Shown here in pieces: positions 192-39,798 of a stretch of 40,228 bases of DNA. The stretch is from Balneolaceae bacterium (GTDB lineage: Bacteria; Bacteroidota; Rhodothermia; Balneolales; Balneolaceae): contig SLJB01000073.1 of assembly GCA_007135335.1 (NCBI GenBank), positions 1 through 40,228 on the forward strand, in the 5' to 3' direction. Positions within the stretch are counted from its first letter, which is position 1. Every line of letters begins with the position of its first letter. A program made the position numbers and the translations under genes. The notes under the pieces were generated by a model. That model made no database searches, was not told the origin of the DNA, and saw nothing but the letters and a program-made list of their open reading frames with translations.

Positions 192-1199
192 ATGCCATTG
201 ATTTTAGACAGAAACGAAGTGTTGGAGATGTACGCTTTTGCCCGCGAAAAAAAGTGGGTTCTTCCAACATTCAATACAGAAAACCTAACTACTACTGAAG
301 CCATACTGAGTGCCGTATCCGATTATGGCAAAAAGATGGGGATTAATAACCTGCCCATTATTGTGGGAATCACCAATACGTATAAAGATCGGCCGCAATC
401 GGTTTACTACTCCCATACCAGAAACTGGGAGATCGGTCTTCGTCTCTTTTTGAAAGATCTTGATGTGCTCACTTCACCTGAATCCCCGTTCAGTAATCTG
501 AAGGTGATGATTCACCTCGATCACATCATCTGGGATGAAGATCTGGAACTGCTCAATTGGGATATGCGGCAATTCTCATCCATTATGTATGATGCATCCA
601 CACTTCCGTTTGAAGAGAATATCAAAAAAACAGCGCACTTTGTGGAAAAGAACAAAGATTTGGTTTTGATAGAAGGGGCGTGCGATGAAATTTCCAAAGC
701 AGAAACATCGGGCAATGCAGATGACCTGACAACCCCCGAAATGGCTGAAACTTTTTTTTCGGGTACCGGCGTAGATATTATTGTGCCCAATCTGGGAACC
801 GAACATCGGGCCACGGCATCGACCCTTAAATATCACGGTGATCTGGCTCGGGAGATTTCAGCCAAAACAGGTCCGTATTTATGCCTGCATGGAACCTCAT
901 CTGTTTCGCAAAACGAATTGACAAGCCTGTTTGATGACGGGGTTTGCAAGGTGAACCTCTGGACCGCCCTCGAGCGCGACAGCACCTACGCCCTCTTTTT
1001 GAACATGGTGAAGAATGCATCCAAACTGATAGGCCCGGCGAAAACGAAGGAGATGGTGGGTAAGGGTCTTCTCGGAATTATTGCGGATAGCGAGAGTGCA
1101 CCGTCACTCGATTTCTATACCACAACGTACCGGCAGGATCTGACCTTCCAGAGAATGAAGGAGATTATAAAGCAATATCTATCAATCTGGTACAGGTAG
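192..1199 (+). CDS. Divergent class II (zinc) ketose-(bis)phosphate aldolase
   Basis: 335 residues, near the usual class II fructose-bisphosphate/tagatose-bisphosphate aldolase length. Landmarks occur in family order: HLDH (about 108-111, catalytic Asp and zinc His), MYDAS (about 132-136), a Glu in LIEGACDE (about 160), a His in LGTEHR (about 205), HGTSS (about 233-237) and CKVNLWTAL (about 252-260). In the family these place a zinc ion and the DHAP phosphate. Several glycines are replaced: the usual MxDGS is MYDAS, the usual tHG is EHR, and the HGgSG loop is HGTSS, so this is a distant subfamily and the substrate may not be fructose bisphosphate. An AAGGA stretch lies about 12 nt before the ATG. 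It stands 26 bp upstream of an FGGY kinase, so it likely cleaves the phosphorylated ketose that kinase makes. Cytoplasmic; no signal peptide. Confidence 0.85.
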   Translation: MPLILDRNEVLEMYAFAREKKWVLPTFNTENLTTTEAILSAVSDYGKKMGINNLPIIVGITNTYKDRPQSVYYSHTRNWEIGLRLFLKDLDVLTSPESPFSNLKVMIHLDHIIWDEDLELLNWDMRQFSSIMYDASTLPFEENIKKTAHFVEKNKDLVLIEGACDEISKAETSGNADDLTTPEMAETFFSGTGVDIIVPNLGTEHRATASTLKYHGDLAREISAKTGPYLCLHGTSSVSQNELTSLFDDGVCKVNLWTALERDSTYALFLNMVKNASKLIGPAKTKEMVGKGLLGIIADSESAPSLDFYTTTYRQDLTFQRMKEIIKQYLSIWYR

Positions 1200-3132: not shown

Positions 3133-6099
3133 ATGGGAAAACAAATACATTCCTCACTATTAAAGTTGGGATTTAGTGTATTAATACTATTAGTGGCAGT
3201 TACTACTATTAATGCACAACAAATAACAGTAACAGGTACTGTTACCTCTGCTGCAACGGGCGAAACATTGCCGGGCGTGAATGTTACGATCGTTGGTACA
3301 GCAAGTGGTACAGTGACAAACCTTGACGGTGAATACTCACTAGCTGTAGCTTCCGACGCTACACTGAGATTCTCTTACATAGGGTTTCAGTCCAGAGATG
3401 TTGCAGTTGGCGGAAATTCGGTAATCAATGTTCAGCTTAATGAGAGTACTGCTACTCTTGATGAAGTTCTTGTACTTGGTTATGCTACAATTTCAAAACG
3501 TCAGGTAACCAGCTCGGTATCACAGATTTCAGGTGAAAATTTAAACGTGGTGGCTACACACGACCCGATTGATATGCTTCAGGGCCAGATGGCAGGTGTG
3601 GTTGTGAACCGATCATCCGGACAGCCGGGTGCAAACTCTTCGATTGAAATTCGTGGAAGGGGTTCTATTTCTGCTTCATCGTCTCCTCTCTATGTAATTG
3701 ATGGTGTTATTGCCGGTACAGGTTCACGCGATGCGGTCAGTCCTTCAGATATTGCTTCTATAACTGTGTTGAAAGATGCTGCTGCTACAGCGCTATACGG
3801 TTCCCGTGCATCAAATGGCGTTGTGGTTATTACCACTAAAAGAGGTCGTTCAGGTGCAACCCAGGTGAATGTTCGTTCGTCCGTTGGTTTTAGTCAGGTA
3901 CTTCAGGGTAATGAGGAGTTTATGAATGCTCAGGAATTGTATGACTGGCACCAGAATTTGGTAAATGCTCCATCAGGGCCATTCTACAACAGACAAGAGG
4001 TATTGGCACACGATACCAACTGGTTTGATGTTGGTTTTGACGGCGGCGGAACACAGAATTTTGAAGCCTCAGTTTCAGGTGGTGACGACCGGACTCGTTT
4101 CTATCTTTCCGGTGGTTATTATAATGAAACCGGAACCGGTATTGGTACCAACTTCGATCGTCTTTCAGGGCGTGTGAATGTTCAGCATAATCTAACGGAT
4201 CGTATCGAAATTGCAGCACAGGTATCAGGTACCTACTCAAGTCGGTTTGATGTGGTATCCGGTAACCCTTACAATATGCTGCGGTTTGCAGTAAGTAATG
4301 TACCGTGGGATACCCCTTACAATGCCGATGGTACTGTGCGAACCGGTAGAGAAGCTGACTGGTACTCTCGTGATTCGGAAAACCCTCTTCATGGTATGCA
4401 GTGGAATTCAGACGCGAACGATGTGACCTACTTCTCCGGAGATTTAAATCTTCGCTATAATATTGCCGACTGGGTTTCTTTCAGAACCAACAATCGTTTC
4501 TCTTTGAGAAATGGTGTTCGCGAGATTTTCCAGGATTCACGTTCTGCAGCCGGTGCAACAAGAAACGGTACAATTGAAAACAGAAATGATCAGTCACACT
4601 CTGTGATTACTTCTAACCTGTTCAATTTTAATAAAGGCTGGGCACGTCAATCACTGAGTGGTCTTGCAGGTTTTGAATTTCAGGATAACAGAAGTGAAAA
4701 TGCATGGGTAACCGGTATTGGTTTAGCTCCCGGAATGCAGATCTTAAGTTCTGCAGCTACTGCCTTTTCAACTGCAGGTAACATCAATGAAAGCGCATTT
4801 TCCTCTTTCCTTGCTCAGGCTGAGTATGAGTGGGCCGAAACCTACATTGCAACCCTCTCTTTCCGTCGCGATGGTTCTTCCCGATTTGGCGCCAACAACC
4901 GCTGGGGTAACTTCTGGTCGCTGTCCGGTTCATGGATTATCAGTAATGAAACATTCATGCAGGATGTTGACTTTCTGGATCAGTTAGCACTTCGGGCAAG
5001 TTACGGTACCACAGGTAATGCGGAGATCAGCAACTACGGTGCCTACGGTCTTTACGCATTTACACGTTCTTACTTCGGTGTTCCTGCCAGCTGGCCTGCA
5101 CGTACGCCTAATCCGGATCTTACATGGGAAGTTGCAAAAACGATCAATGTTGGTATTGATGTTGATGTAATGGACCGCGTAAACTTCTCTGTTGATGTGT
5201 ATCGAAGAGACAATGAAGATCTTCTTCAGAATGTAACGCTTCCGGGTACAAGTGGTATCAGCAGCCAGCTTCAAAACGTAGGAAGTGTGCGTAACCATGG
5301 TATTGAATTCCAGATTACCACTCGTAACGTTCAGTCAACCAGTTTTAACTGGAACACAACACTTACCCTTAGCAGCAACAGAAACGAAGTGATTGCTTTG
5401 AGTAATGGAGATGCCATTAACTACGGTGGTATATACAGAATTGAAGAAGGCTACGATATCAACTCCGTATATATGAGAAAATGGCACGGTGTGAATCCGC
5501 AAACGGGTGCTCCTCAGTGGGAAGTAGTTACACGTAACGATGATGGTGATATTATTGCCAGAGACATCACCGAAGATTACGGTACAGCCAATCCGCAAAT
5601 TGTTGGATCAACCACACCTAAATTTCAGGGTGGTATTAACAACTCATTCCAGTATGGCAACTTCTCGTTCAATGCATTTTTTACATTCGAGCAGGGCAGT
5701 CAGCGCTATTTGGGCGGATCAGGTCTTGATCATGGTGCTTACATGACCACGAACAAGCGTAAACTGCAGCCGGGCGAAAGCTACTGGAGACAGCCGGGTG
5801 ACAATGCAACATTTCCTGCGCAAATTGTAAATGGTAACAACAGTGCTCAGTTAGAATCTTCTCTCTATCTGTACGACAGTTCGTACCTGCGCTTAAGAAA
5901 TGCAAGAATTGCGTATGACCTGCCACAAGACAGCGGCATCATGCAGACACTCGGTATGAGAAGCCTGCGTGTATATGCAAGTGGAGACAACCTGCTCACT
6001 TTCACCAGCTATCCGGGTAAAGATCCCGCATCAGGTGTAGGTGGTGGCGGATACCCGATTGCCAAGACATACCTTTTTGGTATTGAATTAGGCTTTTAA
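3133..6099 (+). CDS. SusC-like TonB-linked outer-membrane transporter (first pair)
   Basis: 988 residues, typical of SusC/RagA. In order: signal peptide ending near NAQQ (about 29), a carboxypeptidase-regulatory-like beta-sandwich (about 32-110, with GETLPGVNVTIVGT), a TonB-box-like segment DEVLVLGYAT, a plug domain (about 120-235), the SusC signature region around SITVLKDAAATALYGSRAS, and a long barrel ending in an aromatic residue (IELGF). With its SusD partner 31 bp downstream it should import oligosaccharides or glycosides across the outer membrane using TonB energy. The ATG at 3133 is chosen because it gives a complete signal peptide. The ligand cannot be read from the sequence. The plug is distinct from that of the second SusC, suggesting different ligands. 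Confidence 0.96.
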   Translation: MGKQIHSSLLKLGFSVLILLVAVTTINAQQITVTGTVTSAATGETLPGVNVTIVGTASGTVTNLDGEYSLAVASDATLRFSYIGFQSRDVAVGGNSVINVQLNESTATLDEVLVLGYATISKRQVTSSVSQISGENLNVVATHDPIDMLQGQMAGVVVNRSSGQPGANSSIEIRGRGSISASSSPLYVIDGVIAGTGSRDAVSPSDIASITVLKDAAATALYGSRASNGVVVITTKRGRSGATQVNVRSSVGFSQVLQGNEEFMNAQELYDWHQNLVNAPSGPFYNRQEVLAHDTNWFDVGFDGGGTQNFEASVSGGDDRTRFYLSGGYYNETGTGIGTNFDRLSGRVNVQHNLTDRIEIAAQVSGTYSSRFDVVSGNPYNMLRFAVSNVPWDTPYNADGTVRTGREADWYSRDSENPLHGMQWNSDANDVTYFSGDLNLRYNIADWVSFRTNNRFSLRNGVREIFQDSRSAAGATRNGTIENRNDQSHSVITSNLFNFNKGWARQSLSGLAGFEFQDNRSENAWVTGIGLAPGMQILSSAATAFSTAGNINESAFSSFLAQAEYEWAETYIATLSFRRDGSSRFGANNRWGNFWSLSGSWIISNETFMQDVDFLDQLALRASYGTTGNAEISNYGAYGLYAFTRSYFGVPASWPARTPNPDLTWEVAKTINVGIDVDVMDRVNFSVDVYRRDNEDLLQNVTLPGTSGISSQLQNVGSVRNHGIEFQITTRNVQSTSFNWNTTLTLSSNRNEVIALSNGDAINYGGIYRIEEGYDINSVYMRKWHGVNPQTGAPQWEVVTRNDDGDIIARDITEDYGTANPQIVGSTTPKFQGGINNSFQYGNFSFNAFFTFEQGSQRYLGGSGLDHGAYMTTNKRKLQPGESYWRQPGDNATFPAQIVNGNNSAQLESSLYLYDSSYLRLRNARIAYDLPQDSGIMQTLGMRSLRVYASGDNLLTFTSYPGKDPASGVGGGGYPIAKTYLFGIELGF

Positions 6100-6130: not shown

Positions 6131-7693
6131 ATGAAACATATATATTTAAAAGCTGCTGTGGTATTCTTTCTCATCATGCTTTTAGCAGCATGCGACATTA
6201 CAAGAGCCCCTTATGACGGCATACCGCCGGATCAGGCACTTGCAAATGTGGAAGGAATAGAGAATGTTACGCGGGGGAATTACGCACATCTGAAAAATCT
6301 TACCGCAGGAACGAACAACCTCGTAATGATGATGTTCCAGTCCGGTGATTACCGAAGTGACGACCTGATGATTAGTGGTACCACGTCCAATCGGATGATG
6401 CTTACCTACAACTATCTTCACAATCCGGATATGCCAAATACTCTGAACCTTTGGAGACAAGGATATCAGATGATATACAATACCAATACGGTAATTGATG
6501 CGGTTACCCCGGGGACGTCACCTCAGATAGATCAGCTGTTAGGTGAAAACTATTTCCTGCGTGGAATGATGCATCTTTACATTGCAAAAGGATTTGCCAG
6601 GCCATACTCACATGGTACAAACAACCTTGGAATCCCGTATATGCGGGAACCCGATGTAAATGCGCGTCCTGCACGAGAATCTGTAGGTGATACTTACAAT
6701 TTTATTGTTCAGGACCTAACTCAGTCATATCAGCTGATGAACCAGCGAAAATCAAGTTCATTTGCTTCATCTGAAGCGGCCATGGCACTGCTTTCCAGAG
6801 TATATCTCTACATGGAAAACAATCAGGCAGCTCTTGAGTATGCTGACAGAGTGATTAACTCCGGGCGTTACCAGCTGATTGGCACGAATGACTATCCTCA
6901 ATACTTCACCATGAACAACGAAACGCGAAGTGAGTCGATCTTTGCGATCCATCACACTCCGGCTGATGACCATGGACGTAGTCATGGAATAGGTTCGATG
7001 TTCTATGAAAAATCCGGTTCGGGATGGGGAGAGAATTATGCCTCCGGTGCATTACGTGAGCTGTTAGATAAATGGCCTACGGATGTGCGTCGTGATTTCA
7101 TCGAGCCACAATATATCCTGGATGATGATGGAAACATTCAGTACCACCCAGACGGCAGACCGGTACTGCGAGAGCGTAACGGTTTCCCGAGATACTATGT
7201 CACCAAATTCGTAGGTCCTCCAACAGCACTTACTCTTTCACATCCTGAGCTTATTCGTTACACTGAGATTTATCTCAACAAAGCGGAAGCTCTTGCCAAA
7301 CTTGGAAGAGAGCAGGAAGCCCTGGATATTGTGAACCAGCTGAGAACCCGGGCAGGTATACCTGCCGAAGGCCTCTACTCACTAGGTAACCTTGGTACAC
7401 ACAGTACTGTACTTGACGTGGTAATCGAAGAGAGAAGGCTGGAGCTGTTCTTCGAGGGGCACAGAGCACACGATCTGTTCAGAAACAAGAAAACCATGTT
7501 CAGAAACTATCGCGGAACGCACCTCGCACCGGGCAACCCCGGCGTGGAATTCAGAGATAATCTTCCTGCAATTGCTAATGATCTCCCGCCGCTCGGTACT
7601 CAAACCATTGGCCCGGATCATCCGCGAATTGTATGGTATATTCCTGAAAGTGAACTCGATATCAACCCGAACTTAGTTCAGAATCCGAATTAA
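6131..7693 (+). CDS. SusD/RagB-like outer-membrane glycan-binding lipoprotein (first pair)
   Basis: 520 residues. The N-terminus has a lipoprotein signal peptide with lipobox LLAAC, so the mature protein starts at Cys21 and is probably surface-exposed on the outer membrane. Family hallmarks are seen: the TPR-like segment EIYLNKAEALAKLG, the VIEERRLELFFEGHRAHDLFR region near the C-terminus, and a final NPN-rich tail (NPNLVQNPN). SusD proteins form the lid over the SusC barrel and capture the ligand. It lies 31 bp after SusC and is followed by a strong terminator 17 bp past its stop, so the pair looks like a self-contained transcription unit with limited read-through into the GH109-like cassette. 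The ligand is unknown. Confidence 0.96.
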   Translation: MKHIYLKAAVVFFLIMLLAACDITRAPYDGIPPDQALANVEGIENVTRGNYAHLKNLTAGTNNLVMMMFQSGDYRSDDLMISGTTSNRMMLTYNYLHNPDMPNTLNLWRQGYQMIYNTNTVIDAVTPGTSPQIDQLLGENYFLRGMMHLYIAKGFARPYSHGTNNLGIPYMREPDVNARPARESVGDTYNFIVQDLTQSYQLMNQRKSSSFASSEAAMALLSRVYLYMENNQAALEYADRVINSGRYQLIGTNDYPQYFTMNNETRSESIFAIHHTPADDHGRSHGIGSMFYEKSGSGWGENYASGALRELLDKWPTDVRRDFIEPQYILDDDGNIQYHPDGRPVLRERNGFPRYYVTKFVGPPTALTLSHPELIRYTEIYLNKAEALAKLGREQEALDIVNQLRTRAGIPAEGLYSLGNLGTHSTVLDVVIEERRLELFFEGHRAHDLFRNKKTMFRNYRGTHLAPGNPGVEFRDNLPAIANDLPPLGTQTIGPDHPRIVWYIPESELDINPNLVQNPN

Positions 7694-7832: not shown

Positions 7833-9245
7833 ATGAAAAATAACCGTCGTGAATTCCTGAAAAAAAGCGGCCTGGCCGGTCTTGGTTTAATGGGGGCCGG
7901 TCTTTCCGGTTCAGCAAAAGATAATGCGCCATTTAAGCTGAATAACAGAAATAGTTTTAACATGCATGGTTATAAAGCTCCTGCAATAGATACTGTTGGT
8001 GTGGCTATCATCGGTCTTGGGAATCGGGGAACGGGAACCACGAGAAGGCTGGCAAGCATTGAGGGTGTAGAAATTAAAGCCATCTGTGATTTAGAGCCGG
8101 ATCGCGTTGAGCGGGCAAAAGGAATTCTGGAAACAACACATCACCGCCCGGATGGCTATTCCGGTGGAGAAGATGAGTGGAAAAAAGTATGTGAGCGAGA
8201 TGATATTGATCTTGTTGCTGTTGTAACCCCGTGGCACCTTCATACTGTACAGTGTGTGTATGCCATGGAAAACGGCAAACACGCCTATACCGAACTTCCT
8301 GCCGCAAACACGATAGATGAATGCTGGGAACTTGTGGAAACATCAGAGCGTACTAAAATGCACTGTGTTCAAATGTCCAGTTCTTGCCACGGCGGCAGGC
8401 AGGCTGTACTGCTCAATATGATTCGTCATGGTGTTTTCGGTGAATTGATTCATGCTGAGGGTGCTTATGTACACGATCTCCTTAATGATTACAATTTTAC
8501 AAAGCATATGTACCACAACATGTGGCGCCTGAATGAAAATATTGGCCGGCACGGAAGTTTGTACCCGCAGCACGGATTTATTCCCATTTCACAAATGATG
8601 GACCTTAACTACGGCGACACAGTTGAGCATCTCGTGTCAGTTTCGAGCAACGATTTTATGATGGGTGAAACTGCCAAAAAGCTGGCGGCTGAAGATTCCT
8701 ACTGGGAGCAGTATGTAGGTAAAGATTATCGCGGCAACATGAACGTAACCACCATGAAGACCGCAAAAGGCAAAACCATTGTGATTCAGCATGACGTGAC
8801 ATCGCCGCGCCCTCGTCCGCAGCAACCACTTCTCAGCGGTACCAAAGGATTTTATGCAAACGGCCGCTTTGCAACCGATCACAGCAGATATTTTACGGAT
8901 GAAGAGTTTCAGGAACTGGTAGATCAGTACACTCCGCAAATTACCAAAGTATTTCGTGAAGCTGTTGAACAGGCAAGCAATACAGAGCGTGGCAGACATT
9001 CCTATTTTAATGTGAATGAAACTGACTGGCGATTAATCGACAGCCTTCGGAATGGCCTGCCTGTTGAAATTGATGTTTATGATGCCGCACTTTCAAGTGC
9101 AATTACACCGCTGAGTGAATGGTCCGTGGCAAACAGATTCAATTCAGTTCGTGTACCCGATTTTACCTCCGGCGCTTGGAAAACAAACAGCCGGGGTATG
9201 GATATTAACCTCGAGAATGGCGGTGGTACAACAGGTATTCTATAG
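7833..9245 (+). CDS. Tat-exported GH109-like Gfo/Idh/MocA-family protein, paralogue A
   Basis: 470 residues. A Tat signal (NRREFLKKSG then a hydrophobic stretch) has no lipobox Cys, so the mature protein should be soluble in the periplasm. A Rossmann NAD-binding domain follows (IIGLGNRGTG, about 59-68), then the Gfo/Idh catalytic domain. The stretches EDEWKKVCERDDIDLV, TPWHLH, HAEGAYVHDL, NMWRLNEN and LYPQHGF match the pattern of GH109, a family of NAD-dependent alpha-N-acetylgalactosaminidases acting by transient oxidation. The Glu of ELP (154) and the His of PQHG (247) are kept, but the position where GH109 normally has Tyr in a CYG-type motif is His186 (SSSCHGG). It starts 80 bp after a terminator. 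It may be a glycosidase or a glycoside dehydrogenase on an altered substrate; Gfo/Idh membership is certain, the reaction is not. Confidence 0.88.
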   Translation: MKNNRREFLKKSGLAGLGLMGAGLSGSAKDNAPFKLNNRNSFNMHGYKAPAIDTVGVAIIGLGNRGTGTTRRLASIEGVEIKAICDLEPDRVERAKGILETTHHRPDGYSGGEDEWKKVCERDDIDLVAVVTPWHLHTVQCVYAMENGKHAYTELPAANTIDECWELVETSERTKMHCVQMSSSCHGGRQAVLLNMIRHGVFGELIHAEGAYVHDLLNDYNFTKHMYHNMWRLNENIGRHGSLYPQHGFIPISQMMDLNYGDTVEHLVSVSSNDFMMGETAKKLAAEDSYWEQYVGKDYRGNMNVTTMKTAKGKTIVIQHDVTSPRPRPQQPLLSGTKGFYANGRFATDHSRYFTDEEFQELVDQYTPQITKVFREAVEQASNTERGRHSYFNVNETDWRLIDSLRNGLPVEIDVYDAALSSAITPLSEWSVANRFNSVRVPDFTSGAWKTNSRGMDINLENGGGTTGIL

Positions 9246-9267
9246 TACAGCTCTTAATTAGCACTCA

Positions 9268-9304
9268 ATGTCTCCCGGGAAGATCAGCTCAACCCGGGAG
9301 ACAT
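9268..9304. repeat. Perfect 12-bp inverted repeat (intercistronic hairpin)
   Basis: ATGTCTCCCGGG at 9268-9279 and CCCGGGAGACAT at 9293-9304 are perfect complements around a 13-nt loop, between paralogue A and the first amidohydrolase. No T tract follows, so it is not a standard intrinsic terminator. A role in RNA stability, processing or partial attenuation is inferred. Confidence 0.75.
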
Positions 9305-9337
9305 ATCTATTAAACCGGAACATTTTTAAAAAATAAC

Positions 9338-10483
9338 ATGGAAAACAACCGACGTACTTTTCTGAAAAAAAGCGGATTGGCCGGCCTTGGTTTGGCTGGT
9401 TTGGGATTTATGGGTTCAGCCCCGGCTAAAGAAGAAAATCAATCCACAAATTTTGATGTTGAAAATGGCAACCTTCGTCTCATTGATTGGGAACCGATAT
9501 CACAAATGGTGGTAAAGGAGACCGAAGTTCTCAAACCAAAATATCCCGCCATTGATATCCACAATCACCTGCGCGATCTGGACAGCCTGCCCGACTATCT
9601 GAAAGCAATGGATGAAGCCGGAGTGTGGAAGGTTGTAAGTCTGGATGGCCGTTCGGCAGATAATTTTTACATTGAGCATATCAGGGCTTGTCAGCGGGTT
9701 AGCAGAAACCGCTTTGTTGTTTTCTTTACTCCCGATTTAACCAAAATTGATGAGCCCAACTACGGGCAGCGTGAAGCCGACAAACTGGAACATGCTGTTG
9801 AATTAGGCGCCCGTGGTGTGAAGATTTTCAAATCGCTTGGACTTACCGCTAAAGACAGAAACGGTAATATTGTACCGGTTGATGATCCGCGATTAGATCC
9901 CTTCTGGGCTAAATGCGGTGAACTGGGTATTCCCTGCTTAATGCATGTTTCTGATCCTAAGGCTTTCTTTACACCGGTTGATCGCTATAACGAACGGTAT
10001 GACGAACTGGGTGAGCGTCCGCACTGGGCATTCTTTGGTGATGAATTCCCGGACAAAGAAGACATACTGGATCAGCGTAATCGTGTCTTTGAACGCCATC
10101 CAGATACTACATTTATAGCCACACACATGGCCAATCTGCCCGAAGAACTTGGGCGAGTATCTATGTGGCTGGAAAAATATCCCAATATGTATGTGGATAT
10201 TAATGCAAGGATCAGTGAACTGGGCCGCCAGCCATACACATGCAGAAAGTTCATGATTAAATACCAGGACAGGATCCTGTTCGGCACCGATACGCGTCCC
10301 AACGTGGAAGCTTTCAGAATCTATTATCGTTTTCTGGAAACGGATGATGAATATATAAATGCCGATGCAAGTCACCATCGCCAGGGAAGATGGCATATTT
10401 ACGGTGTTCACCTGCCTGATGAAGTTCTTGAAAAAATCTACAACAAGAATGCCGTTAAAATATTCAATCAGTTTAAAGGATAA
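9338..10483 (+). CDS. Tat-exported amidohydrolase-2 family TIM-barrel metal hydrolase
   Basis: 381 residues. The N-terminal Tat signal NNRRTFLKKSGLAGLGL is nearly the same as that of the upstream GH109-like gene, although the mature domains are unrelated; no lipobox Cys, so soluble periplasmic. The amidohydrolase metal-site pattern is intact: HNH (His75/His77) in strand 1, Lys162 region (VKIFKSLG), His203 (CLMHVSD), His263 (IATHMANL) and Asp318 (LFGTDTR). The family includes sugar lactonases and decarboxylases as well as amide hydrolases. Between redox-type glycosidase genes, hydrolysis of a lactone or an acyl/amide substituent is reasonable, but the substrate is not readable. It lies 92 bp after paralogue A (with a hairpin between) and 61 bp before paralogue B, probably in the same operon. 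Confidence 0.88.
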   Translation: MENNRRTFLKKSGLAGLGLAGLGFMGSAPAKEENQSTNFDVENGNLRLIDWEPISQMVVKETEVLKPKYPAIDIHNHLRDLDSLPDYLKAMDEAGVWKVVSLDGRSADNFYIEHIRACQRVSRNRFVVFFTPDLTKIDEPNYGQREADKLEHAVELGARGVKIFKSLGLTAKDRNGNIVPVDDPRLDPFWAKCGELGIPCLMHVSDPKAFFTPVDRYNERYDELGERPHWAFFGDEFPDKEDILDQRNRVFERHPDTTFIATHMANLPEELGRVSMWLEKYPNMYVDINARISELGRQPYTCRKFMIKYQDRILFGTDTRPNVEAFRIYYRFLETDDEYINADASHHRQGRWHIYGVHLPDEVLEKIYNKNAVKIFNQFKG

Positions 10484-10544
10484 ACACCATATGCTGATCT
10501 CAGGACTCAACAATCAACTAAAGCTCAACTAAATCTTCATAACC

Positions 10545-11981
10545 ATGAAAAGCAATCGCAGAGATTTTCTAAAAATATCGGGAATAGGCACATTAGGTAT
10601 TTTAGCAGGCTGTACTTCCAGTCGCGAAATAGAAAGCAAATTAAGTGAAATCAGAGAACAGGCTGAACGCACCCGAACGCAGCATTTTAATATGCACGGC
10701 TATGCCGCACCTGCAATGGATGTGGTTCGCGTTGGCGTTACCGGTTTGGGTAATCGTGGTTCAGGTACTGCGCGCCGTTTTGCAAGTATCGCAAATGTAG
10801 AGGTTGTAGCCCTGAACGATGTTCGCCCTGAAATGGTAGAGCGCTCGAAACAAGCAATTTCAGCATCGCATGACCCTGTGGGCTACTCAGATGGCCCCGA
10901 AGACTGGAAACGAATGTGCGAACGCGATGACATAGACCTGATCTGCATTGCCACCCCATGGGAACTGCACGCACCGCAGGCTATTTACGCTATGGAGCAT
11001 GGCAAGCATGTGTATGTGGAATTACCTGCTGCCAATACATTGGAAGAGTGCTGGCAGCTTGTGGAAACATCAGAACGAACACAAAAACACCTTGTTCAGA
11101 TGTCAAGCTCGTGCCATTATGGAGATGCTTCATTCGTGCTTAATATGATTCGCCAGGGACTTTTTGGTGAAGTTTTGCATGCAGAGGGTGGTTACATTCA
11201 TGATTTGATGAACTCACACAACTTCTCTAAAACTATGTATTATGAGATGTGGAGGCTGAACGAAAATATCGATCGTGACGGAAATCTCTATCCTCAGCAC
11301 GCTTTAACTCCAATGGCACAGATGATGGATATTAATTACGGCGATCAGTTTGATCACCTGGTTTCTATGCAGACAAACGATTTCATGATGGGTAAAAAAG
11401 CTGAAGAGCTTGCCGCTGAAGACAGTTTCTGGGAGCCGTATGTTGGCCGCAATTACAGCGGAAATATGAACACTACTCTTGTACGAACAGCCAATGGAAA
11501 AACAATCGTTATTCAGCATGATGTAACCACACCCCGTCCGGGTATTCGATTCCATATGATTAATGGAACCAAAGGTTCATATCTGGCACGTCCGGGTAGA
11601 ATAGGTTTCAGTTACCGGGATGGATGGATTCCGCAAGCAGATTATGATGCGCTGGTAGAAGAGTACACACCAAGAATTACCAAAGTTTTTAATGAGATGA
11701 TTCGACAGGCTGAGCAAACCGGCAGGCCGGAACACTCCTATGCGCGAGTAAATGCCATGGACTGGCGTTTGATTGACTGTCTCAGAAATGGTCTTCCCGT
11801 AGAGGTTGACGTTTACGATTCAGTAGCTACTACATCTATAACTCCGTTAAGTGAGTGGTCTGTGGCCAATGGATCCATGCCGGTTAAGGTGCCGGATTTC
11901 ACCGGTGGTTCATGGAGAACCAATGAGCGAGGAATGAACGTAAACCTGGAAACAGGTGGCGGAAATACCCGCATCAGATAG
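10545..11981 (+). CDS. Tat-exported GH109-like Gfo/Idh/MocA-family lipoprotein, paralogue B
   Basis: 478 residues. The Tat signal SNRRDFLKISG is followed by a lipobox (ILAGC, Cys23), so it is a likely Tat lipoprotein tethered in the periplasm, unlike paralogue A. A short charged helix (about 26-45) precedes a shared FNMHGYAAPAMD linker. The NAD-binding loop is GLGNRGSG (about 67-74). GH109-like blocks include CERDDIDLICIATPWE, AMEHGKHVYVELPAA, HAEGGYIHDLM and LYPQHALTP. Glu159 and the PQH His are retained; the GH109 Tyr position carries His191 in SSCHYG, with a Tyr one residue later. Paralogue A is its closest relative in the window by eye. A terminator-like hairpin follows. Expected to be NAD-dependent, working on a glycoside; hydrolysis versus net oxidation is undecided. 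Confidence 0.88.
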   Translation: MKSNRRDFLKISGIGTLGILAGCTSSREIESKLSEIREQAERTRTQHFNMHGYAAPAMDVVRVGVTGLGNRGSGTARRFASIANVEVVALNDVRPEMVERSKQAISASHDPVGYSDGPEDWKRMCERDDIDLICIATPWELHAPQAIYAMEHGKHVYVELPAANTLEECWQLVETSERTQKHLVQMSSSCHYGDASFVLNMIRQGLFGEVLHAEGGYIHDLMNSHNFSKTMYYEMWRLNENIDRDGNLYPQHALTPMAQMMDINYGDQFDHLVSMQTNDFMMGKKAEELAAEDSFWEPYVGRNYSGNMNTTLVRTANGKTIVIQHDVTTPRPGIRFHMINGTKGSYLARPGRIGFSYRDGWIPQADYDALVEEYTPRITKVFNEMIRQAEQTGRPEHSYARVNAMDWRLIDCLRNGLPVEVDVYDSVATTSITPLSEWSVANGSMPVKVPDFTGGSWRTNERGMNVNLETGGGNTRIR

Positions 11982-12005
11982 GTTGCAATTACAGTAGAAA
12001 CTTCA

Positions 12006-12060
12006 GGGCAATACATGCAGAAGCTCAGGATTGAAAAGCTGCTTGTATTGCCCTTTTTTT
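12006..12060 (+). terminator. Rho-independent terminator after paralogue B
   Basis: GGGCAATACA (12006-12015) pairs perfectly with TGTATTGCCC (12044-12053), with an inner GCAG/CTGC stem, and is followed directly by seven T residues (12054-12060). It starts 25 bp after the stop and should separate paralogue B from paralogue C. Confidence 0.88.
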
Positions 12061-12124
12061 GATCTCAACTTCTTGTAAAATCACCGATCGGCAGATTGTT
12101 TTAGCCGTTCTTATCAAATAATCA

Positions 12125-12151
12125 GGGATTAGTCACACAGGATATAATCCC
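12125..12151. promoter_or_regulatory. Inverted repeat upstream of paralogue C
   Basis: GGGATTA (12125-12131) and TAATCCC (12145-12151) are 7-bp complementary arms with a 13-nt spacer, between the terminator and the start of paralogue C. An operator or leader hairpin is possible. No promoter match was found. Confidence 0.35.
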
Positions 12152-12173
12152 ACAGTAAAAAGGGAATAAATAG

Positions 12174-13607
12174 ATGGAAAGCAATCGCAGAGATTTTCTG
12201 AAAGCAGCAGGTGTAGGTTCGTTAGGTTTGATGGGTGCAGGTTTACTAAGCAGTTGTTCAAACAAAGCAGAAGCCCAAAGCCATTTAAACCATATAGAAG
12301 AGCAGGCCAACAGGCAATACACACCACAATTCAACATGCATGGTTTTGCTGCTCCGGCATTGGATGTTGTTCGTATCGGGGCTACGGGTCTGGGTGGCAG
12401 GGGTTCCGGAAATATGCGAAGATTGGCACAGATTGAAGGTGTGGAGATCAGAGCTCTGAACGATTTGGACCCCGGGAGAACACAGGCCGCTGCAGAATCC
12501 ATCAGTCATTTTGGGTTCAATCCTGAACTCTATTCCGGCCATGAAGATGATTGGAAAAAAATGTGTGAACAAGACGACCTCGATCTGATTATCGTCGGCA
12601 CGCCGTGGCATCTGCATGCACCGCAGGCTATTTATGCGATGGAGCAGGGCAAGCACGTGGCTGTTGAAGTGCCCATTGGCGTAACTGTTGAAGAGTGCTG
12701 GAAACTGGTTGAAACATCGGAGCGAACCCGTAAGCACTGCATGATGATGTCGAACCCGAATTACGGCGATTTTAACATGATGGTACTCGGAATGGCGCGC
12801 GATGGGTTCCTCGGAGAAATTATACATGGCGAAGGTGCCTACATCCACGACCTGATGCGATCACACAATTTCACGCAGAGATACCACAACATGTGGCGGC
12901 TGAAAGAGAATGCAACCCGCGATGGAAACCTCTATCCAACACACGGACTCGGTTCACTATGCCAGGCAATGGATATAAACAACGGTGACCAGATGGACTT
13001 TATAGTATCGGTTTCTTCGAACGATTTTATGATGGGTGAAACAGCCAAAGAGTTAGCCGCTGCCGACCCGGCTTTCGAACCATTTGTGGGGATGAATTTT
13101 CGAGGAAATATGAACACGAGTATCATCAAAACGAAAAAAGGTCGCACAATTATGCTCCAGCACGATGTTACTTCGCCGCGACCCGGTGTTCGCTTTGATC
13201 TGCTGAGCGGAACAAAAGGCATTGTTCAAAACAGGCCTCCACGATTTGCTCATGATCACGACGGCTGGGTGAGTGATACTGAATTTGCCGAAATTCAGGA
13301 GAAGTACAGACCTGAAATCAGTAAACGTGTAGGTGATATCTCAAGGCAAATTGGAGGCCATGGCGGCATTGACACCATGATGAGCTGGCGCCTTGTGGAC
13401 TGCCTCCGTAACGGAATTCCGCTGGATATGTCGGTTTATGACGGCGTATTGTGGAGTGTTATTGCTCCCTTAAGTGAGTGGTCGGTTGCTAACAACGGAA
13501 GGCCAATCAACGTGCCTGATTTTACAGCAGGCAACTGGCAGACCAACGACCGCTTGATGGATATTGAACTTGTTCATGGCGGCAATACAGGTATTAAACC
13601 GATTTAG
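12174..13607 (+). CDS. Tat-exported GH109-like NAD-dependent glycosidase-family lipoprotein, paralogue C
   Basis: 477 residues. The Tat signal SNRRDFLKAAG ends in a lipobox-like LLSSC (Cys28), so probably a periplasmic lipoprotein. NAD loop GLGGRGSG (about 72-79). Of the three paralogues this is closest to canonical GH109: VEVPIGVTVEECW (Glu165), Tyr197 in NPNYGD where EmNagA-type enzymes have their Tyr, and His257 in LYPTHG, plus GEGAYIHDLMRSHNF and NMWRLKENATRDGNLYPTHGLG. A GH109 alpha-N-acetylgalactosaminidase-like retaining reaction through NAD-mediated oxidation at C3 is therefore plausible, though not proved. It starts 113 bp after a terminator and is followed at 31 bp by a lipoprotein amidohydrolase, suggesting a second unit (C, amidohydrolase, GMC). 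Alternative: a glycoside 3-dehydrogenase. Confidence 0.9.
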   Translation: MESNRRDFLKAAGVGSLGLMGAGLLSSCSNKAEAQSHLNHIEEQANRQYTPQFNMHGFAAPALDVVRIGATGLGGRGSGNMRRLAQIEGVEIRALNDLDPGRTQAAAESISHFGFNPELYSGHEDDWKKMCEQDDLDLIIVGTPWHLHAPQAIYAMEQGKHVAVEVPIGVTVEECWKLVETSERTRKHCMMMSNPNYGDFNMMVLGMARDGFLGEIIHGEGAYIHDLMRSHNFTQRYHNMWRLKENATRDGNLYPTHGLGSLCQAMDINNGDQMDFIVSVSSNDFMMGETAKELAAADPAFEPFVGMNFRGNMNTSIIKTKKGRTIMLQHDVTSPRPGVRFDLLSGTKGIVQNRPPRFAHDHDGWVSDTEFAEIQEKYRPEISKRVGDISRQIGGHGGIDTMMSWRLVDCLRNGIPLDMSVYDGVLWSVIAPLSEWSVANNGRPINVPDFTAGNWQTNDRLMDIELVHGGNTGIKPI

Positions 13608-13638
13608 CCTGAATGTTCACAAAATCAGAAATGGAATA

Positions 13639-14811
13639 ATGAAAAAATCAAAACGGAACAGGTCATTGATGGCCGGCAGAATGCTCAGTTTATTTATAAG
13701 TCTGCTAATACTTCAGGGCTGTTCAAACACAGATAATCCAGGGAGCGAATATTACTCGCCGGATGATTACACCTCGGTGCCAAAATTTAATTCCCATGTG
13801 CACCTGCATGGCGATAATACCACCTATATCGATCAATCGGTTGATGACAATTTTAAACTGCTTTCGTTTGTCTCCTCTTCTCCAAACAGAACCAGACAAA
13901 TCTCCATTATAGACCAGGAAAAACATACCCTGCAACTCATGGAGAGTTATCCCGAAGATTTGTTCTTAACAACAACTCTGTTAAATCCTTACGGATTTAA
14001 TGAAGAGGGATGGGTGGAAGAAGCGATAGCTCATATGGATCAATCTTTCAAAAACGGAGCGGTGGCCATAAAAATAAGAAAAAGCATTGGGATGGAAGTG
14101 CGAAAACCCAATGGTGATTTTGTCCGGATTGACGACCCGAAATTTGATCCGATCATTCAGTTTATCGCAGATAACAACATCACGCTGATTGGCCATATCG
14201 GCGAGCCGAAAAATTGCTGGCTGCCACTTGAGGAGATGACAGTTGGAGGCGATAGGCAGTATTACAGTGAAAATCCACAATATCATATGTACCTGCATCC
14301 CGAATTTTTATCGCACGAGGATCACATCAGCGCGGTCGAAAATATGCTTGAGAAGCATCCGGATGTACGCTATGTTGGGGCGCATCTTGCAAGCCTTGAG
14401 TATGATGTGGATGAACTCGCAAAACGGCTCGACAGGTTTCCGAACCTGGCTGTTGATATGGCCGAACGCATTTCACATTTTCAATATCAGGCTGTAACCG
14501 ACTGGCAAAAAGTCCGCGATTTTTTTATCAAGTACCAGGACCGGCTGATCTATGCCACGGATGATTCGAACTATGGCCCAAAACCCTACTTTGGAGCTGA
14601 ACTTACAGATCAAACACTGAGAACAGATCAGCAAATTCGCGATGCCACAACCGAAAATTATCAGCGGCATTGGAAGTTTTTCACTTATGATGGCGTGATG
14701 ACCGCCCCAAAATTACCGGACATGGAGTTTCGTGCATTGAATCTTCCCAAAGAAGTGGTAGATAAGATCTACCTGGAAAATGCACAAATATGGTTTCCCG
14801 GAATATTATAG
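13639..14811 (+). CDS. Amidohydrolase-2 family lipoprotein
   Basis: The ORF track starts at 13564, inside paralogue C; I choose the ATG at 13639 because it gives 390 residues beginning MKKSKRNRS, a basic n-region, a hydrophobic stretch and a lipobox ILQGC (Cys28), and removes the overlap. TIM-barrel metal ligands are seen: SHVH (His53/His55), a Lys in AIKIRKSIG, His in IGHIGEP, His in GAHLAS and Asp in YATDDS. It shares long blocks (GHIGEP, NCWLPLEEMTV, a LPKEVVDKIY ending) with the - strand amidohydrolase at the right end of the window but is only distantly related to the one at 9338. Likely a periplasmic hydrolase of a glycan-derived amide or lactone; the substrate is unknown. It lies 31 bp after paralogue C and 115 bp before the GMC gene. 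Confidence 0.87.
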   Translation: MKKSKRNRSLMAGRMLSLFISLLILQGCSNTDNPGSEYYSPDDYTSVPKFNSHVHLHGDNTTYIDQSVDDNFKLLSFVSSSPNRTRQISIIDQEKHTLQLMESYPEDLFLTTTLLNPYGFNEEGWVEEAIAHMDQSFKNGAVAIKIRKSIGMEVRKPNGDFVRIDDPKFDPIIQFIADNNITLIGHIGEPKNCWLPLEEMTVGGDRQYYSENPQYHMYLHPEFLSHEDHISAVENMLEKHPDVRYVGAHLASLEYDVDELAKRLDRFPNLAVDMAERISHFQYQAVTDWQKVRDFFIKYQDRLIYATDDSNYGPKPYFGAELTDQTLRTDQQIRDATTENYQRHWKFFTYDGVMTAPKLPDMEFRALNLPKEVVDKIYLENAQIWFPGIL

Positions 14812-14926: not shown

Positions 14927-16642
14927 ATGAATTTTATTGGTAAAACCACAGAAGAGCGAACATTTGATGCTATTGTAATAGGCTCCGGGATGAGCGGCGG
15001 ATATGCTGCCAAGGAGCTATGTGACAGGGGGGTAAAGACCCTTGTTCTTGAAAGAGGACGCCCGCTCAAACATGGCGATTATCCCACAGCAACTCTCGAC
15101 CCCTGGGAGATAGACAATGCCGGGCGTCTGTCACGCGAAATGCTTCAGCGAAATCCGATTATAGCCCGCTGTTACGCGTACGATAAAACAACGGAGCATC
15201 TCTTTGTGAAGGATGAGGAGCAGCCTTATATACAGGAAAAACCGTTTGACTGGATCCGCAGTTACCAGGAAGGTGGAAAATCCCTGGTATGGGCTCGTGG
15301 CTGCCAGCGATGGAGCAAGTACGATTTTGAAGCCCCGGGCCGTGATGGTTACGGTATCGAGTGGCCTATTACCTATGATGATCTTGCACCCTGGTATTCA
15401 GATGTGGAACGGTTTGTAGGCTGGAGCGGAAATAAGGATGGCCTGGAGCATTTTCCTGATGGTGAGTTCCTGCCCCCGTATGAGTTTAACTGTGTTGAAA
15501 AACACATGAAAGAGAAAGTAGAAAGCACATTTAAAGATAGGTTTTTTATCCAGGGACGATGCGCCCATCTTACTGAAGTTAAAGAAATTCACCGGCAGCA
15601 GGGCAGGGGGCTGTGCCTCTCCAGAACATTATGCCAGCGCGGCTGTCCGTATGGCGCTTATTTCAGCTCAAATTCCTCTACACTACCCTGGGCAGAGCGA
15701 ACAGGGAATCTTACCATCCGTACCCATTCTGTGGTGCACTCCATCATCTATGATGAAGACCTGGGTAAGGCAACAGGTGTGCGGGTAGTGGATGCTAATA
15801 CCCTCGAGATGACTGAATTTTATGCACGGATTGTGTTTGTGAACGCAGCCTGCATCAATTCGAATATGATATTGCTGAATAGTACGTCAGATCGATTTCC
15901 AAACGGACTGGGCAATGACAGCGGTGTACTTGGTCACTACATCGGTTTTCATAACTATCGCGGACGAATGAGCGCCACGATTGATGGTTTTGACGATAGT
16001 TATTTTTACGGCAGGAGACCGACCGGCCCTATCATCCCCCCATTTCGAAATGTTTTCGGTCAGGAGAGTGATGCAGATTTTCAGGGTCGATATCATATCT
16101 CAATGAATGCAAGCCGTCCCGGGTGGAACCGTGGTGTGCGATCAGATAAGATCGGAAAAGAGTTGATTGAAGAACTTCAGACTCCCGGAAGCTGGAGAAT
16201 CGGCGGGCGGATGTCAGGTGAAGTGGTGCCGAAGTTCGAAAATCATGTTCGCCTCAGTGAAACAGAGACCGATAAATGGGGTTTCCCGCAGCTAGTTATT
16301 TCCATTGATTACGCTGAAAATGATGTAAAAATGATGCACGATTTTCTGGAAAAGGGAGCTGAGATTCTGGAAGCTGTGGGAGGGAAAAACATCACAGTGA
16401 GTGATAATAACCAGGCTCCCGGACTTGACATCCACGAGATGGGAGGTGTGCGGATGGGTAAAGATCCCAAAACATCCATCCTGAACAAATGGAACCAGGT
16501 GCACAGTTGCAAAAATGTATTTGTGACCGATGGTGCTTGCATGACCACCGTTTCTACTCAAAATCCTTCGTTAACATTTATGGCTTTGACTGCAAGAGCA
16601 GCAAATTACGCCGTAGAACAGATACGAAAAGGTGATTTGTGA
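14927..16642 (+). CDS. GMC-family flavoprotein oxidoreductase
   Basis: 571 residues. FAD-binding Rossmann motif near the N-terminus (IVIGSGMSGGYAAKEL, then TLVLERGR), the flavin-contact segment GGKSLVWARGCQRW, and a C-terminal GMC domain with HEMGGVRMG (His about 503) and TQNPSLTFMALTARAA (Asn about 546), the His/Asn pair of the pyranose-2-oxidase and glucoside-3-dehydrogenase branch. It should oxidise a sugar hydroxyl to a ketone. No signal peptide precedes the Rossmann fold and no small Tat-bearing 'subunit 3' partner is nearby, so it looks cytoplasmic or dependent on an unlinked partner. It ends the + strand cassette, 92 bp from a convergent PIG-L gene. Production of a 3-keto sugar is inferred from the DUF1080 and Gfo/Idh genes in the locus. 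Confidence 0.92.
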   Translation: MNFIGKTTEERTFDAIVIGSGMSGGYAAKELCDRGVKTLVLERGRPLKHGDYPTATLDPWEIDNAGRLSREMLQRNPIIARCYAYDKTTEHLFVKDEEQPYIQEKPFDWIRSYQEGGKSLVWARGCQRWSKYDFEAPGRDGYGIEWPITYDDLAPWYSDVERFVGWSGNKDGLEHFPDGEFLPPYEFNCVEKHMKEKVESTFKDRFFIQGRCAHLTEVKEIHRQQGRGLCLSRTLCQRGCPYGAYFSSNSSTLPWAERTGNLTIRTHSVVHSIIYDEDLGKATGVRVVDANTLEMTEFYARIVFVNAACINSNMILLNSTSDRFPNGLGNDSGVLGHYIGFHNYRGRMSATIDGFDDSYFYGRRPTGPIIPPFRNVFGQESDADFQGRYHISMNASRPGWNRGVRSDKIGKELIEELQTPGSWRIGGRMSGEVVPKFENHVRLSETETDKWGFPQLVISIDYAENDVKMMHDFLEKGAEILEAVGGKNITVSDNNQAPGLDIHEMGGVRMGKDPKTSILNKWNQVHSCKNVFVTDGACMTTVSTQNPSLTFMALTARAANYAVEQIRKGDL

Positions 16643-16734: not shown

Positions 16735-17607
16735 TCATGTAACATGCGGATAGTTTAACATGGGAAAAAGTTCGAGAATCTCCTTATCCGTAGGTTGATA
16801 TCCATACTCTGCAATTTCAAAAGATTCAACCCTGTCTATGCGCCGGGCGTTTTCAGCGCCATACCATTTTACCACCGATTTTTTGACATTATCGGACAGA
16901 TGGTCCATTTGGCTATTCCAGTTATCGAGCCATTTAACCAGCCACTCTTTTCTTTTGACGGGATTTTTTGGAACATCTTCATCGATACCCATAACCCTCG
17001 GCAGCCATTCATAAAATTGAGAAACATGCGCATCCAGGCCGTCAATTTTTGTTGAAAATGTATCGTCTACGGCTACGGTAATATCAGGAGTAAATGGATT
17101 TGGTCTTTTGAAACCATCCTCCATATAGAGAAAAACCGGATTTTTCTTCAATGCAGGAGTATCTGAAACAACATTTGGTACAACAACCAAAAAAGCGGCG
17201 TCCATAACCAATGTGCCGGCATAGCGATGATCGGGGTGATAGTCATTTGGCCGTAACCCGATCACTATATCAGCATTCCATTTTCGAATTTCCCTTATGA
17301 TATCATGCCGGATATGTAGATTCGGCATAAGTTCAGCATCGTGATTATCAAAAATCACATATTCGTCTATTCCGAGAATTTCAGCTGCTTTTTTTGCTTC
17401 ATCTGCTCTTCGTTTGGCTAAGGGTCCTCCCCCTTCTTCATGATGTCCGGCATCTCCGTTGGTCAGAGATAAAAACTTTACAGCATGTCCCATTTTGGCA
17501 AATTTAGCAGCTGTGCCGCCCATTTTAACTTCTGCATCATCCGGATGGGCAAATATCGCTATGATTCGAAGCTTGCGTTCAATCTGAGTGCTTTTTTCTT
17601 TTTCCAA
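16735..17607 (-). CDS. Cytosolic PIG-L family deacetylase
   Basis: 290 residues with the LmbE/PIG-L zinc motifs AHPDDAE (about 20-26) and DYHPDHR, plus SLTNGDAGHH. These enzymes remove acyl (usually N-acetyl) groups from amino sugars, as in GlcNAc-inositol or bacillithiol/mycothiol precursors. No signal peptide, so cytoplasmic, in contrast with its exported homologue at 30081. The start codon is TTG at 17607; no in-frame ATG or GTG lies between it and the upstream stop, and the core motif begins soon after, so TTG is the best start. The gene follows the - strand TIM-barrel gene by 86 bp that contain a long hairpin. It is convergent with the GMC gene. The substrate is unknown; an N-acetylated hexosamine product of the periplasmic enzymes is a fair guess. 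Confidence 0.9.
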   Translation of the reverse strand: MEKEKSTQIERKLRIIAIFAHPDDAEVKMGGTAAKFAKMGHAVKFLSLTNGDAGHHEEGGGPLAKRRADEAKKAAEILGIDEYVIFDNHDAELMPNLHIRHDIIREIRKWNADIVIGLRPNDYHPDHRYAGTLVMDAAFLVVVPNVVSDTPALKKNPVFLYMEDGFKRPNPFTPDITVAVDDTFSTKIDGLDAHVSQFYEWLPRVMGIDEDVPKNPVKRKEWLVKWLDNWNSQMDHLSDNVKKSVVKWYGAENARRIDRVESFEIAEYGYQPTDKEILELFPMLNYPHVT

Positions 17608-38700: not shown

Positions 38701-39798
38701 TCAGATCCCGATACCCGGCATCCACCGGCGGGCATTTTCATGGTAAATCTTGTTCACTACCTCCTTCGGTAATTTCAGTCCTTTGAATGAGCCCTCTACC
38801 TGCCACACTTCAAGCTCATTATCGGTCACGAAAAATTCCCAGTCTTCTCTCCAGGTGTCTTCGGCAAGCTGACGAACTTCTTCAGCAACAGACTCCTCAT
38901 AATGCATCAAATCAGTTGAGTAAACAAACCGATCCTGATATGTAATAAAGAAATCGCGGAGTTTATCGTAATCTTCCTGGGCGAGATACTGGAGATGGGG
39001 AATTCGATGTGCCATGCCTAAAATCATGTTTGGGTAGCGATCCAAATGCTCGCTCATCATCTCAATGCTCCACTCCATACTGCCAAGATGCGCAGCAAAA
39101 AAAGTGAGATCCGGATTTTTATCAAGCATATTATTTCGTGCTTCAATAATCTCCTCGTACGACGGATAATCAGGATTGAGGTACATGTGATATTGCGGAT
39201 GATTTTCGAAATAATCTCTGTCGTTATTGACAGTCATCTCTTCGAGTGGCAGCCAGCAGTTTCTCGGTTCACCGATGTGTCCGTATAGCACATAACCGCC
39301 ATCAGAAAGGTATTCGAAAATCGGATCGAACTGAGGATCGTCGATCATCACAAATTCACCATCTTCATTAATCAGTTCCATGCCGATGTTCTTCCAAACT
39401 TTTACACCAAATGCGCCTCTTTCAAAAGACTCTTGCAGATAATCGAGAGCTTGCTGCTGCCAGGCTTCAGAGTCGTCCCAGTTTTCCAGAGAGAAAGCAG
39501 TGGTGTATGCAAGCTGATCAGGGAACTGTGCTTTTAATTGCGTGGCCACATCCTGTTGATGCGTGACAGGAACTCTGCCGGAGTTTACGTTGAGGGTAAT
39601 CAGCTTCATATTGTCGTTGATTGCCTGCTCGATAACAACGGGATCCATCACATTCAGGTGAACGTGAGTATCAATTTTTTCTACGGAGTAAAAATCGTCA
39701 ACCGAATAGTAGTTGTTATTATCAGCGGAACAGCCTGTAAACAGATATAGAAGAGCAAAAAGGGTTGAGCTTATGAGAAAGCTTTTAAAGAAATTCAT
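38701..39798 (-). CDS. Amidohydrolase-2 family lipoprotein (paralogue of the 13639 gene)
   Basis: 365 residues. Lipoprotein signal with lipobox LFTGC (Cys23). Amidohydrolase metal ligands: THVH (His45/His47), a Lys in GVKVWKNIG, His in YGHIGEP, His in AAHLGS and Asp in YSTDLM. It shares GHIGEP, NCWLPLEEMTV, QYHMYL and the LPKEVV-x-KIY ending with the + strand amidohydrolase at 13639, so the two are true paralogues. First gene of a - strand pair with the PHP hydrolase. The repeat of this unusual subfamily at both ends of the island ties the two halves together functionally. Reaction unknown; hydrolysis of a lactone, amide or ester from the shared substrate is inferred. Confidence 0.88.
   Translation of the reverse strand: MNFFKSFLISSTLFALLYLFTGCSADNNNYYSVDDFYSVEKIDTHVHLNVMDPVVIEQAINDNMKLITLNVNSGRVPVTHQQDVATQLKAQFPDQLAYTTAFSLENWDDSEAWQQQALDYLQESFERGAFGVKVWKNIGMELINEDGEFVMIDDPQFDPIFEYLSDGGYVLYGHIGEPRNCWLPLEEMTVNNDRDYFENHPQYHMYLNPDYPSYEEIIEARNNMLDKNPDLTFFAAHLGSMEWSIEMMSEHLDRYPNMILGMAHRIPHLQYLAQEDYDKLRDFFITYQDRFVYSTDLMHYEESVAEEVRQLAEDTWREDWEFFVTDNELEVWQVEGSFKGLKLPKEVVNKIYHENARRWMPGIGI

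What the first reader, a model, noticed from the sequence alone, without database searches (positions are those of the whole stretch)
7833..14811. Alternating tandem array of GH109-like paralogues and amidohydrolases
The order is A, amidohydrolase, B, C, amidohydrolase on one strand. All are predicted to be exported. Repeated pairing of a redox glycosidase-like protein with a TIM-barrel metal hydrolase suggests a two-step module, for example oxidation or cleavage giving a lactone or exposing an amide that the hydrolase then opens. I know of no described pathway with this pairing.
Basis: partly seen in the sequence, partly recalled or inferred. Interest (0 to 1): 0.75.

Follow-up and report, generated by a model that had tools for sequence, protein, structure and literature searches.

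The report
Predicted amino-sugar deacetylase paired with GH109
In this relative of Rhodohalobacter, sugar-cleaving GH109-like enzymes sit beside metal hydrolases that, judged by their gene neighbours across many genomes, probably clip the acetyl group off the amino sugar GalNAc, a job normally done by an enzyme of another family; this is a prediction that a simple enzyme assay could test.

Summary
In detail: on the + strand, SusC-SusD-[GH109-like A]-[AH1]-[B]-[C]-[AH2]-GMC oxidoreductase, with export signals on all five. It is not a duplicated pair: A, B, C are paralogues (55-59% to A), but AH1 and AH2 are about 25% identical and belong to different subfamilies. The pairing is conserved: in 393 Bacteroidota genomes this AH family lies within 10 kb of a GH109 in 10 of 15 genomes outside the genus, against 1 of 53 for a sister AH subfamily. 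Its strongest link is to the GalNAc (aga) operon: AgaS occurs in 22 genomes, the AH in 21, both in 19, under 5 kb apart in 18. The operon AgaS-(AgaZ or LacC-like)-PfkB-aldolase-AH has every GalNAc step except deacetylation, and 17 of 24 genomes lack NagA/AgaA. Best reading: the AH is a non-orthologous GalNAc deacetylase, with exported copies beside exported GH109-likes. C keeps the published GH109 catalytic triad; A and B lack the GGHGG acid/base loop. Substrate and activity remain untested.

The parts
192..1199 (+). class II aldolase (335 aa); with the FGGY kinase it precedes the array in three Rhodohalobacter genomes
   Evidence: PF01116 E 1.5e-37; contiguous order in L045, L048
1226..2728 (+). 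FGGY sugar kinase (xylulokinase-like)
   Evidence: PF00370/PF02782; TIGR01312 302 bits, below cut-off 380
3133..6099 (+). SusC-like outer-membrane transporter
   Evidence: sequence features; conserved next to the array
6131..7693 (+). SusD-like lipoprotein
   Evidence: sequence features; conserved next to the array
7833..9245 (+). GH109-like A, Tat signal; keeps Tyr226/His259 equivalents, lacks the GGHGG loop (His404); E149->S, Y307->R (2IXA numbering)
9338..10483 (+). AH1: Amidohydro_2, Tat signal, own subfamily
   Evidence: AlphaFold2 pLDDT 85.7
10545..11981 (+). GH109-like B, Tat + lipobox; lacks the GGHGG loop; E149->S, Y307->G
12174..13607 (+). GH109-like C, Tat + lipobox; keeps the catalytic triad and GGHGG; E149->S, Y307->G
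13639..14811 (+). AH2: lipoprotein Amidohydro_2 of the family that also occupies aga operons
   Evidence: AlphaFold2 pLDDT 90.7
14927..16642 (+). GMC-type FAD oxidoreductase, conserved at the end of the array
   Evidence: PF05199/PF00732; in 7 of 42 paired loci
38701..39798 (-). AH3: lipoprotein, same family as AH2

Best explanation
The array is the exported part of a PUL for an N-acetylhexosamine-containing glycan (most likely GalNAc). GH109-like proteins process the glycosidic bond in the periplasm; the AH2-type amidohydrolase family removes the N-acetyl group of GalNAc (or of a GalNAc residue), giving galactosamine and acetate. A cytosolic copy of the same family (own genome, contig C67) stands in the aga operon where the deacetylase AgaA/NagA would stand: GalNAc -> GalN by AH, GalN -> GalN-6-P by the ribokinase-like PfkB, -> tagatose-6-P by AgaS, -> tagatose-1,6-bisphosphate by AgaZ or the LacC-like kinase, -> triose phosphates by the class II aldolase. 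Because the operon-borne AH is cytosolic in Balneolaceae but exported in Chitinophagaceae, it probably acts on unphosphorylated GalNAc, so deacetylation would come first. Shown: gene order, conservation, co-occurrence, metal-site motifs, residue losses. Inferred: the deacetylase activity, the substrate, the order of steps, and that AH1 and AH2 do the same chemistry outside the cell.
For: AgaS in 22 of 393 Bacteroidota genomes, AH2-type in 21, both in 19 (Fisher p 3e-27 by genome, 4e-9 by genus; kinship not removed), under 5 kb apart in 18 of 19. Operon order AgaS-(GatZ or LacC-like kinase)-PfkB-aldolase-AH with AgaR (over the NCBIfam cut-off) and GH109 or SusCD alongside; 24 fetched AgaS loci carry the AH. 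Every step but deacetylation has a gene; nothing above 37 bits to NagA (TIGR00221) in 17 of 24 such genomes. Gammaproteobacterial aga loci: three have a NagA-type gene and no AH, the one with an AH (AgaR-AgaZ-AgaS-NagK-like-AH) has no NagA. Exported AHs next to NagX-family N-acetyltransferase homologues (5 loci), GH20 and PIG-L; one pta-ackA-AH cluster. Complete amidohydrolase site invariant: HxH, H186, H249, D308, with K145/K148. Cytosolic aga AHs are nested in the AH2 family.
Against: No activity or structure: nearest folds are decarboxylases and LigY/LigJ/ACMSD at TM about 0.5 and 9-14% identity, so other chemistry is possible. Most AHs found outside Balneolaceae have no GH109 nearby (61 of 80 loci). 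G015 has a NagA-like gene 10 kb from its AgaS, and G000, G019, G196, G227 have NagA elsewhere. G049 has an aga operon with neither enzyme in the fetched stretch. The array's own upstream genes (SftI/fucose-isomerase-like isomerase, FGGY kinase, two aldolases) are not an amino-sugar pathway. AH1 is a separate subfamily, so its role rests on weaker evidence.
Confidence: 0.52

Rival explanations
1. The window array serves a different sugar than the aga operon: an aldose that is isomerised (SftI/fucose-isomerase-like), phosphorylated (FGGY kinase) and split by an aldolase, with A, B, C as altered Gfo/Idh/MocA glycosidases or dehydrogenases and AH1/AH2 as de-acylases of that sugar.
For: Isomerase, DhnA-type aldolase, class II aldolase and FGGY kinase lie directly upstream of the array in G015 and G007; all three paralogues have lost the substrate-site residues E149 and Y307.
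Against: AH2 belongs to the same family as the aga-operon AHs (41% to the own cytosolic copy); the SftI match is 76 bits against a cut-off of 700, so the sugar is not identified.
Confidence: 0.2
2. The amidohydrolases are sugar lactonases: A-C oxidise a sugar at C1 to a lactone that AH1/AH2 open.
For: Amidohydro_2 and its neighbours include known sugar lactonases (established knowledge); a GMC oxidoreductase ends the array.
Against: No lactonase family match (one search lists none); conserved partners are amino-sugar genes; the cytosolic AH sits in an operon with no sugar dehydrogenase.
Confidence: 0.1
3. The amidohydrolases are hydratases or C-C/carboxyl lyases (LigJ/ACMSD-like) acting on keto- or unsaturated sugars made by the redox partners.
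For: Closest folds are decarboxylases, LigY and LigJ; the window holds other 3-keto-sugar genes.
Against: The fold match is generic for the superfamily (TM about 0.5); it does not explain the presence in aga operons that lack a deacetylase.
Confidence: 0.13
4. Coincidental neighbours in a gene-rich PUL, with no shared pathway.
For: Most AHs of this family in other Bacteroidota lack GH109 neighbours.
Against: 10 of 15 genomes against 1 of 53 for the control subfamily; immediate AH-GH109 adjacency in Sphingobacteriaceae, Cyclobacterium and Cerina.
Confidence: 0.05

Closest known systems
E. coli aga (GalNAc) pathway with AgaA/NagA deacetylase (PMC3668189, PMC12118421)
   Same: AgaR, AgaS, AgaZ/KbaZ-like and KbaY-like proteins; GalNAc to tagatose-6-P logic
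   Different: No PTS uptake genes; the deacetylase slot holds an Amidohydro_2 protein that does not match the NagA family; probably deacetylates before phosphorylation
GH109 N-acetylgalactosaminidases (AmGH109A 6T2B, E. meningoseptica 2IXA)
   Same: C: whole domain and the triad Tyr226/His259/His404 in GGHGG; best PDB match
   Different: A and B lack the GGHGG loop; all three lack E149 and Y307
Flavonifractor plautii FpGalNAcDeAc + FpGalNase (PMC11762096)
   Same: works like it: a GalNAc deacetylase paired with a glycosidase
   Different: other families (FpGalNase is GH36; that its deacetylase is not an Amidohydro_2 protein is from memory)
OngB, amidohydrolase-superfamily deacetylase of GlcNAc1A (PMC12017989)
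   Same: same superfamily, N-acetyl amino-sugar substrate
   Different: OngB is a subtype V, D-aminoacylase-like enzyme with a Cys metal ligand; the AH family here is Amidohydro_2
Shewanella AgaA-II of the Aga pathway (PMC2996990; Leyn 2012 not held)
   Same: a named variant deacetylase of the same pathway
   Different: its sequence could not be compared here; if it belongs to this family the activity is already known

Membership tests
GH109 (CAZy) | Glyco_hydro_109_C domain plus Rossmann NAD domain | tested here: met
   A, B, C over Pfam cut-offs
GH109 (CAZy) | Tyr226 and His259 of AmGH109A (roles as stated in PMC10755693) | tested here: met
   present in A, B, C
GH109 (CAZy) | catalytic His404 in the GGHGG loop | tested here: not met
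   Not met by A and B, nor by their orthologues in G007, G015, G016, G019; met by C. So C may be filed as GH109, A and B only as GH109-like
GH109 (CAZy) | NAD-dependent hydrolysis of GalNAc glycosides | not testable with these tools
   needs an assay
Amidohydro_2 / amidohydrolase superfamily | TIM barrel with HxH, two further His and a beta-8 Asp | tested here: met
   invariant in 50 sequences and 30; confident models
AgaA/NagA GalNAc-6-P deacetylases | membership in TIGR00221 | tested here: not met
   AH1-AH3 match no NCBIfam family; the genome's only NagA over cut-off is on C154. 'Works like AgaA' rests on operon position
aga pathway | AgaS, tagatose-6-P kinase, tagatose-bisphosphate aldolase and AgaR in one locus | tested here: met
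   own C67 and most of the other fetched AgaS loci; the Bacteroidota AgaS matches are below the TIGR02815 cut-off
aga pathway | the AH deacetylates GalNAc or GalNAc-6-P | not testable with these tools
   enzyme assay required

The most novel reading that the evidence does not exclude
A new family of amino-sugar de-N-acetylases within Amidohydro_2 replaces AgaA in Bacteroidota and works before phosphorylation, inside or outside the cell; the exported copies deacetylate GalNAc residues first, and the GH109-like partners lacking E149/Y307 (and in A and B the GGHGG loop) have been re-tuned for the deacetylated or another altered sugar.
Probability: 0.17. Interest if true: 0.75.

Novelty: new variant of a known kind. 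Interest (0 to 1): 0.57.

Why it matters
The deacetylase of the GalNAc pathway is missing from most of these Bacteroidota genomes although the rest of the operon is there; this names a specific, assayable candidate for the gap. If right, it adds an unrecognised deacetylase family to glycan degradation, suggests a deacetylate-first GalNAc route, and gives a gene pairing useful for predicting PUL substrates. It also warns that Pfam 'GH109' genes in such arrays include members without the catalytic loop.

Tried and rejected
Lactonase reading: no family support. Origin by pair duplication: rejected on 25% identity and separate clades. Sulfoquinovose pathway: only a distant SftI match far below cut-off; not claimed. 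PDB sequence search for AH2 found nothing, AH1 only decarboxylase-type entries near E 3e-4. Literature on GH109 plus amidohydrolase: four papers hold both words, none titled on this pairing, not read further. Leyn 2012 on Shewanella AgaA-II not held; a search of 321 gammaproteobacterial genomes gave four AgaS genomes, with no way to tell whether one is Shewanella. score only four or five candidates per genome, so absence of a partner there is not proof of absence.

Full report
The observation. The window is a whole contig (G000:C30) of a 3.4 Mb draft genome; its closest named relatives are Balneolaceae MAGs, and Rhodohalobacter sulfatireducens WB101 carries the orthologous array (its contig has the same length as G015:C61). 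Pfam confirms GFO_IDH_MocA + Glyco_hydro_109_C for A, B, C and Amidohydro_2 for AH1, AH2. Twin-arginine and lipobox motifs are visible in the translations. AH2 most likely starts at 13639.

What kind of array it is. B and C are 59% and 55% identical to A; in a tree of 69 GH109s A and B belong together with orthologues in sister genomes, and C has its own orthologue. AH1 and AH2 are about 25% identical and sit in different clades with full support. So this is an assembled module, not a repeated duplication.

GH109 residues. PMC10755693 gives, for AmGH109A, His404 as base/acid at C3, Tyr226 at C2 and His259 at the glycosidic bond; the cited Teze 2020 title places the acid-base in a GGHGG loop. 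Numbering these on the 6T2B sequence printed gives Tyr, His and the GGHGG His with one offset. C keeps all three. A and B keep Tyr226 and His259 but not the GGHGG loop, and several orthologues of A and B lack even the nearby His. All three have lost E149 and Y307 of 2IXA, both of which are kept in 28 of the 69 proteins. C can be called GH109; A and B are GH109-like.

Conserved pairing. One scan of 85,462 species genomes returned 80 AH-family loci, 19 with a GH109 within the fetched stretch, including immediate AH-GH109 neighbours in Sphingobacteriaceae, Cyclobacterium and Cerina. In 393 Bacteroidota genomes the AH family (at least 255 bits) lies within 10 kb of a GH109 in all 6 genus members that have it and in 10 of 15 other genomes; a sister AH subfamily (170-255 bits), scored in the same search, does so in 1 of 53. 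In the own genome 6 of 7 Amidohydro_2 genes are on GH109 contigs.

The aga link. Clustering the neighbours of 42 paired loci showed an aldolase, a PfkB kinase, a SIS isomerase and a DeoR-type regulator as the commonest partners besides SusC. These are AgaS (TIGR02815, below cut-off), AgaR (over cut-off), GatZ/KbaZ or a LacC-like kinase, and a GatY-like aldolase. The own copy is on C67 (L017): AgaS-GatZ-PfkB-aldolase-transporter-AH-SSS, with AgaR and GH109 beside it. GatZ and the LacC-like kinase replace one another in the Bacteroidota loci, as expected if either serves as tagatose-6-P kinase (a proposal for AgaZ quoted in PMC12118421). AgaS occurs in 22 of 393 genomes and the AH in 21, with 19 shared; in 18 of 19 they are under 5 kb apart. 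Relatedness inflates the p values, but seven genera in several families share the pair. NagA (TIGR00221) is over cut-off in 4 of 24 genomes and above 37 bits in 7; only G015 has a NagA-like gene near its aga operon. In Gammaproteobacteria three aga loci carry NagA-type genes and no AH, and one carries the AH and no NagA, there with a NagK-like kinase.

From position to function. Uptake, kinase, deaminase/isomerase, tagatose-6-P kinase and aldolase each have a gene; deacetylation does not, unless the AH does it. PMC5583593 notes that agaA marks GalNAc users. The cytosolic operon AHs of Balneolaceae and the exported operon AHs of Chitinophagaceae (L079, L090, L115) are neighbours in the tree, which is easier to understand if the substrate is unphosphorylated. 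Other context agrees: NagX-family homologues next to AHs in five loci, GH20 and PIG-L neighbours, a pta-ackA-AH cluster in L069. Models of AH2 and AH1 are confident and show the superfamily fold, with no close solved relative.

Limits. The array itself is preceded in sister genomes by an isomerase, an FGGY kinase and two aldolases, so its sugar may differ from that of the aga operon. Many exported AHs have no GH109 or AgaS neighbour. Shewanella has a named AgaA-II that I could not compare. No activity was measured.

Verdict. Observation confirmed; interpretation partly supported; a testable non-orthologous deacetylase is the best reading, at about even odds for the whole model.

Noticed in passing
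window 16735-36498: Second half holds PIG-L deacetylases, two AP_endonuc_2 isomerase-like proteins, DUF3472, two 3-keto-disaccharide hydrolase proteins and several Gfo/Idh genes: a 3-keto-sugar type locus with its own SusC/SusD.
   Followed up: partly
window 36616-38682: CehA/McbA metallohydrolase (NF038032 over cut-off) beside AH3, conserved in four paired loci.
   Followed up: no
L019 (G000:C274): SftI/fucose-isomerase-like isomerase, DhnA-type aldolase, Gfo/Idh and a GH109-like gene; order in G015 and G007 suggests this contig adjoins the window's left end.
   Followed up: partly
L018 (G000:C154): Another GH109 with the canonical residues lies with NagA and a NagB-like gene, a possible amino-sugar salvage locus.
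   Followed up: partly
G004:C9:178202-179339 (L054): The AH1 orthologue is interrupted by a TGA there, so it may be broken or a sequencing error.
   Followed up: no
L069:4391-8810: pta, ackA and an exported AH run in one direction with gaps of about 9 and 37 bases, as if acetate from the AH were recaptured; a single MAG.
   Followed up: no
L042:15869-19061, L108:6720-11092: A 693-699 aa Melibiase/GH31-like protein lies directly beside AH1-like amidohydrolases.
   Followed up: no
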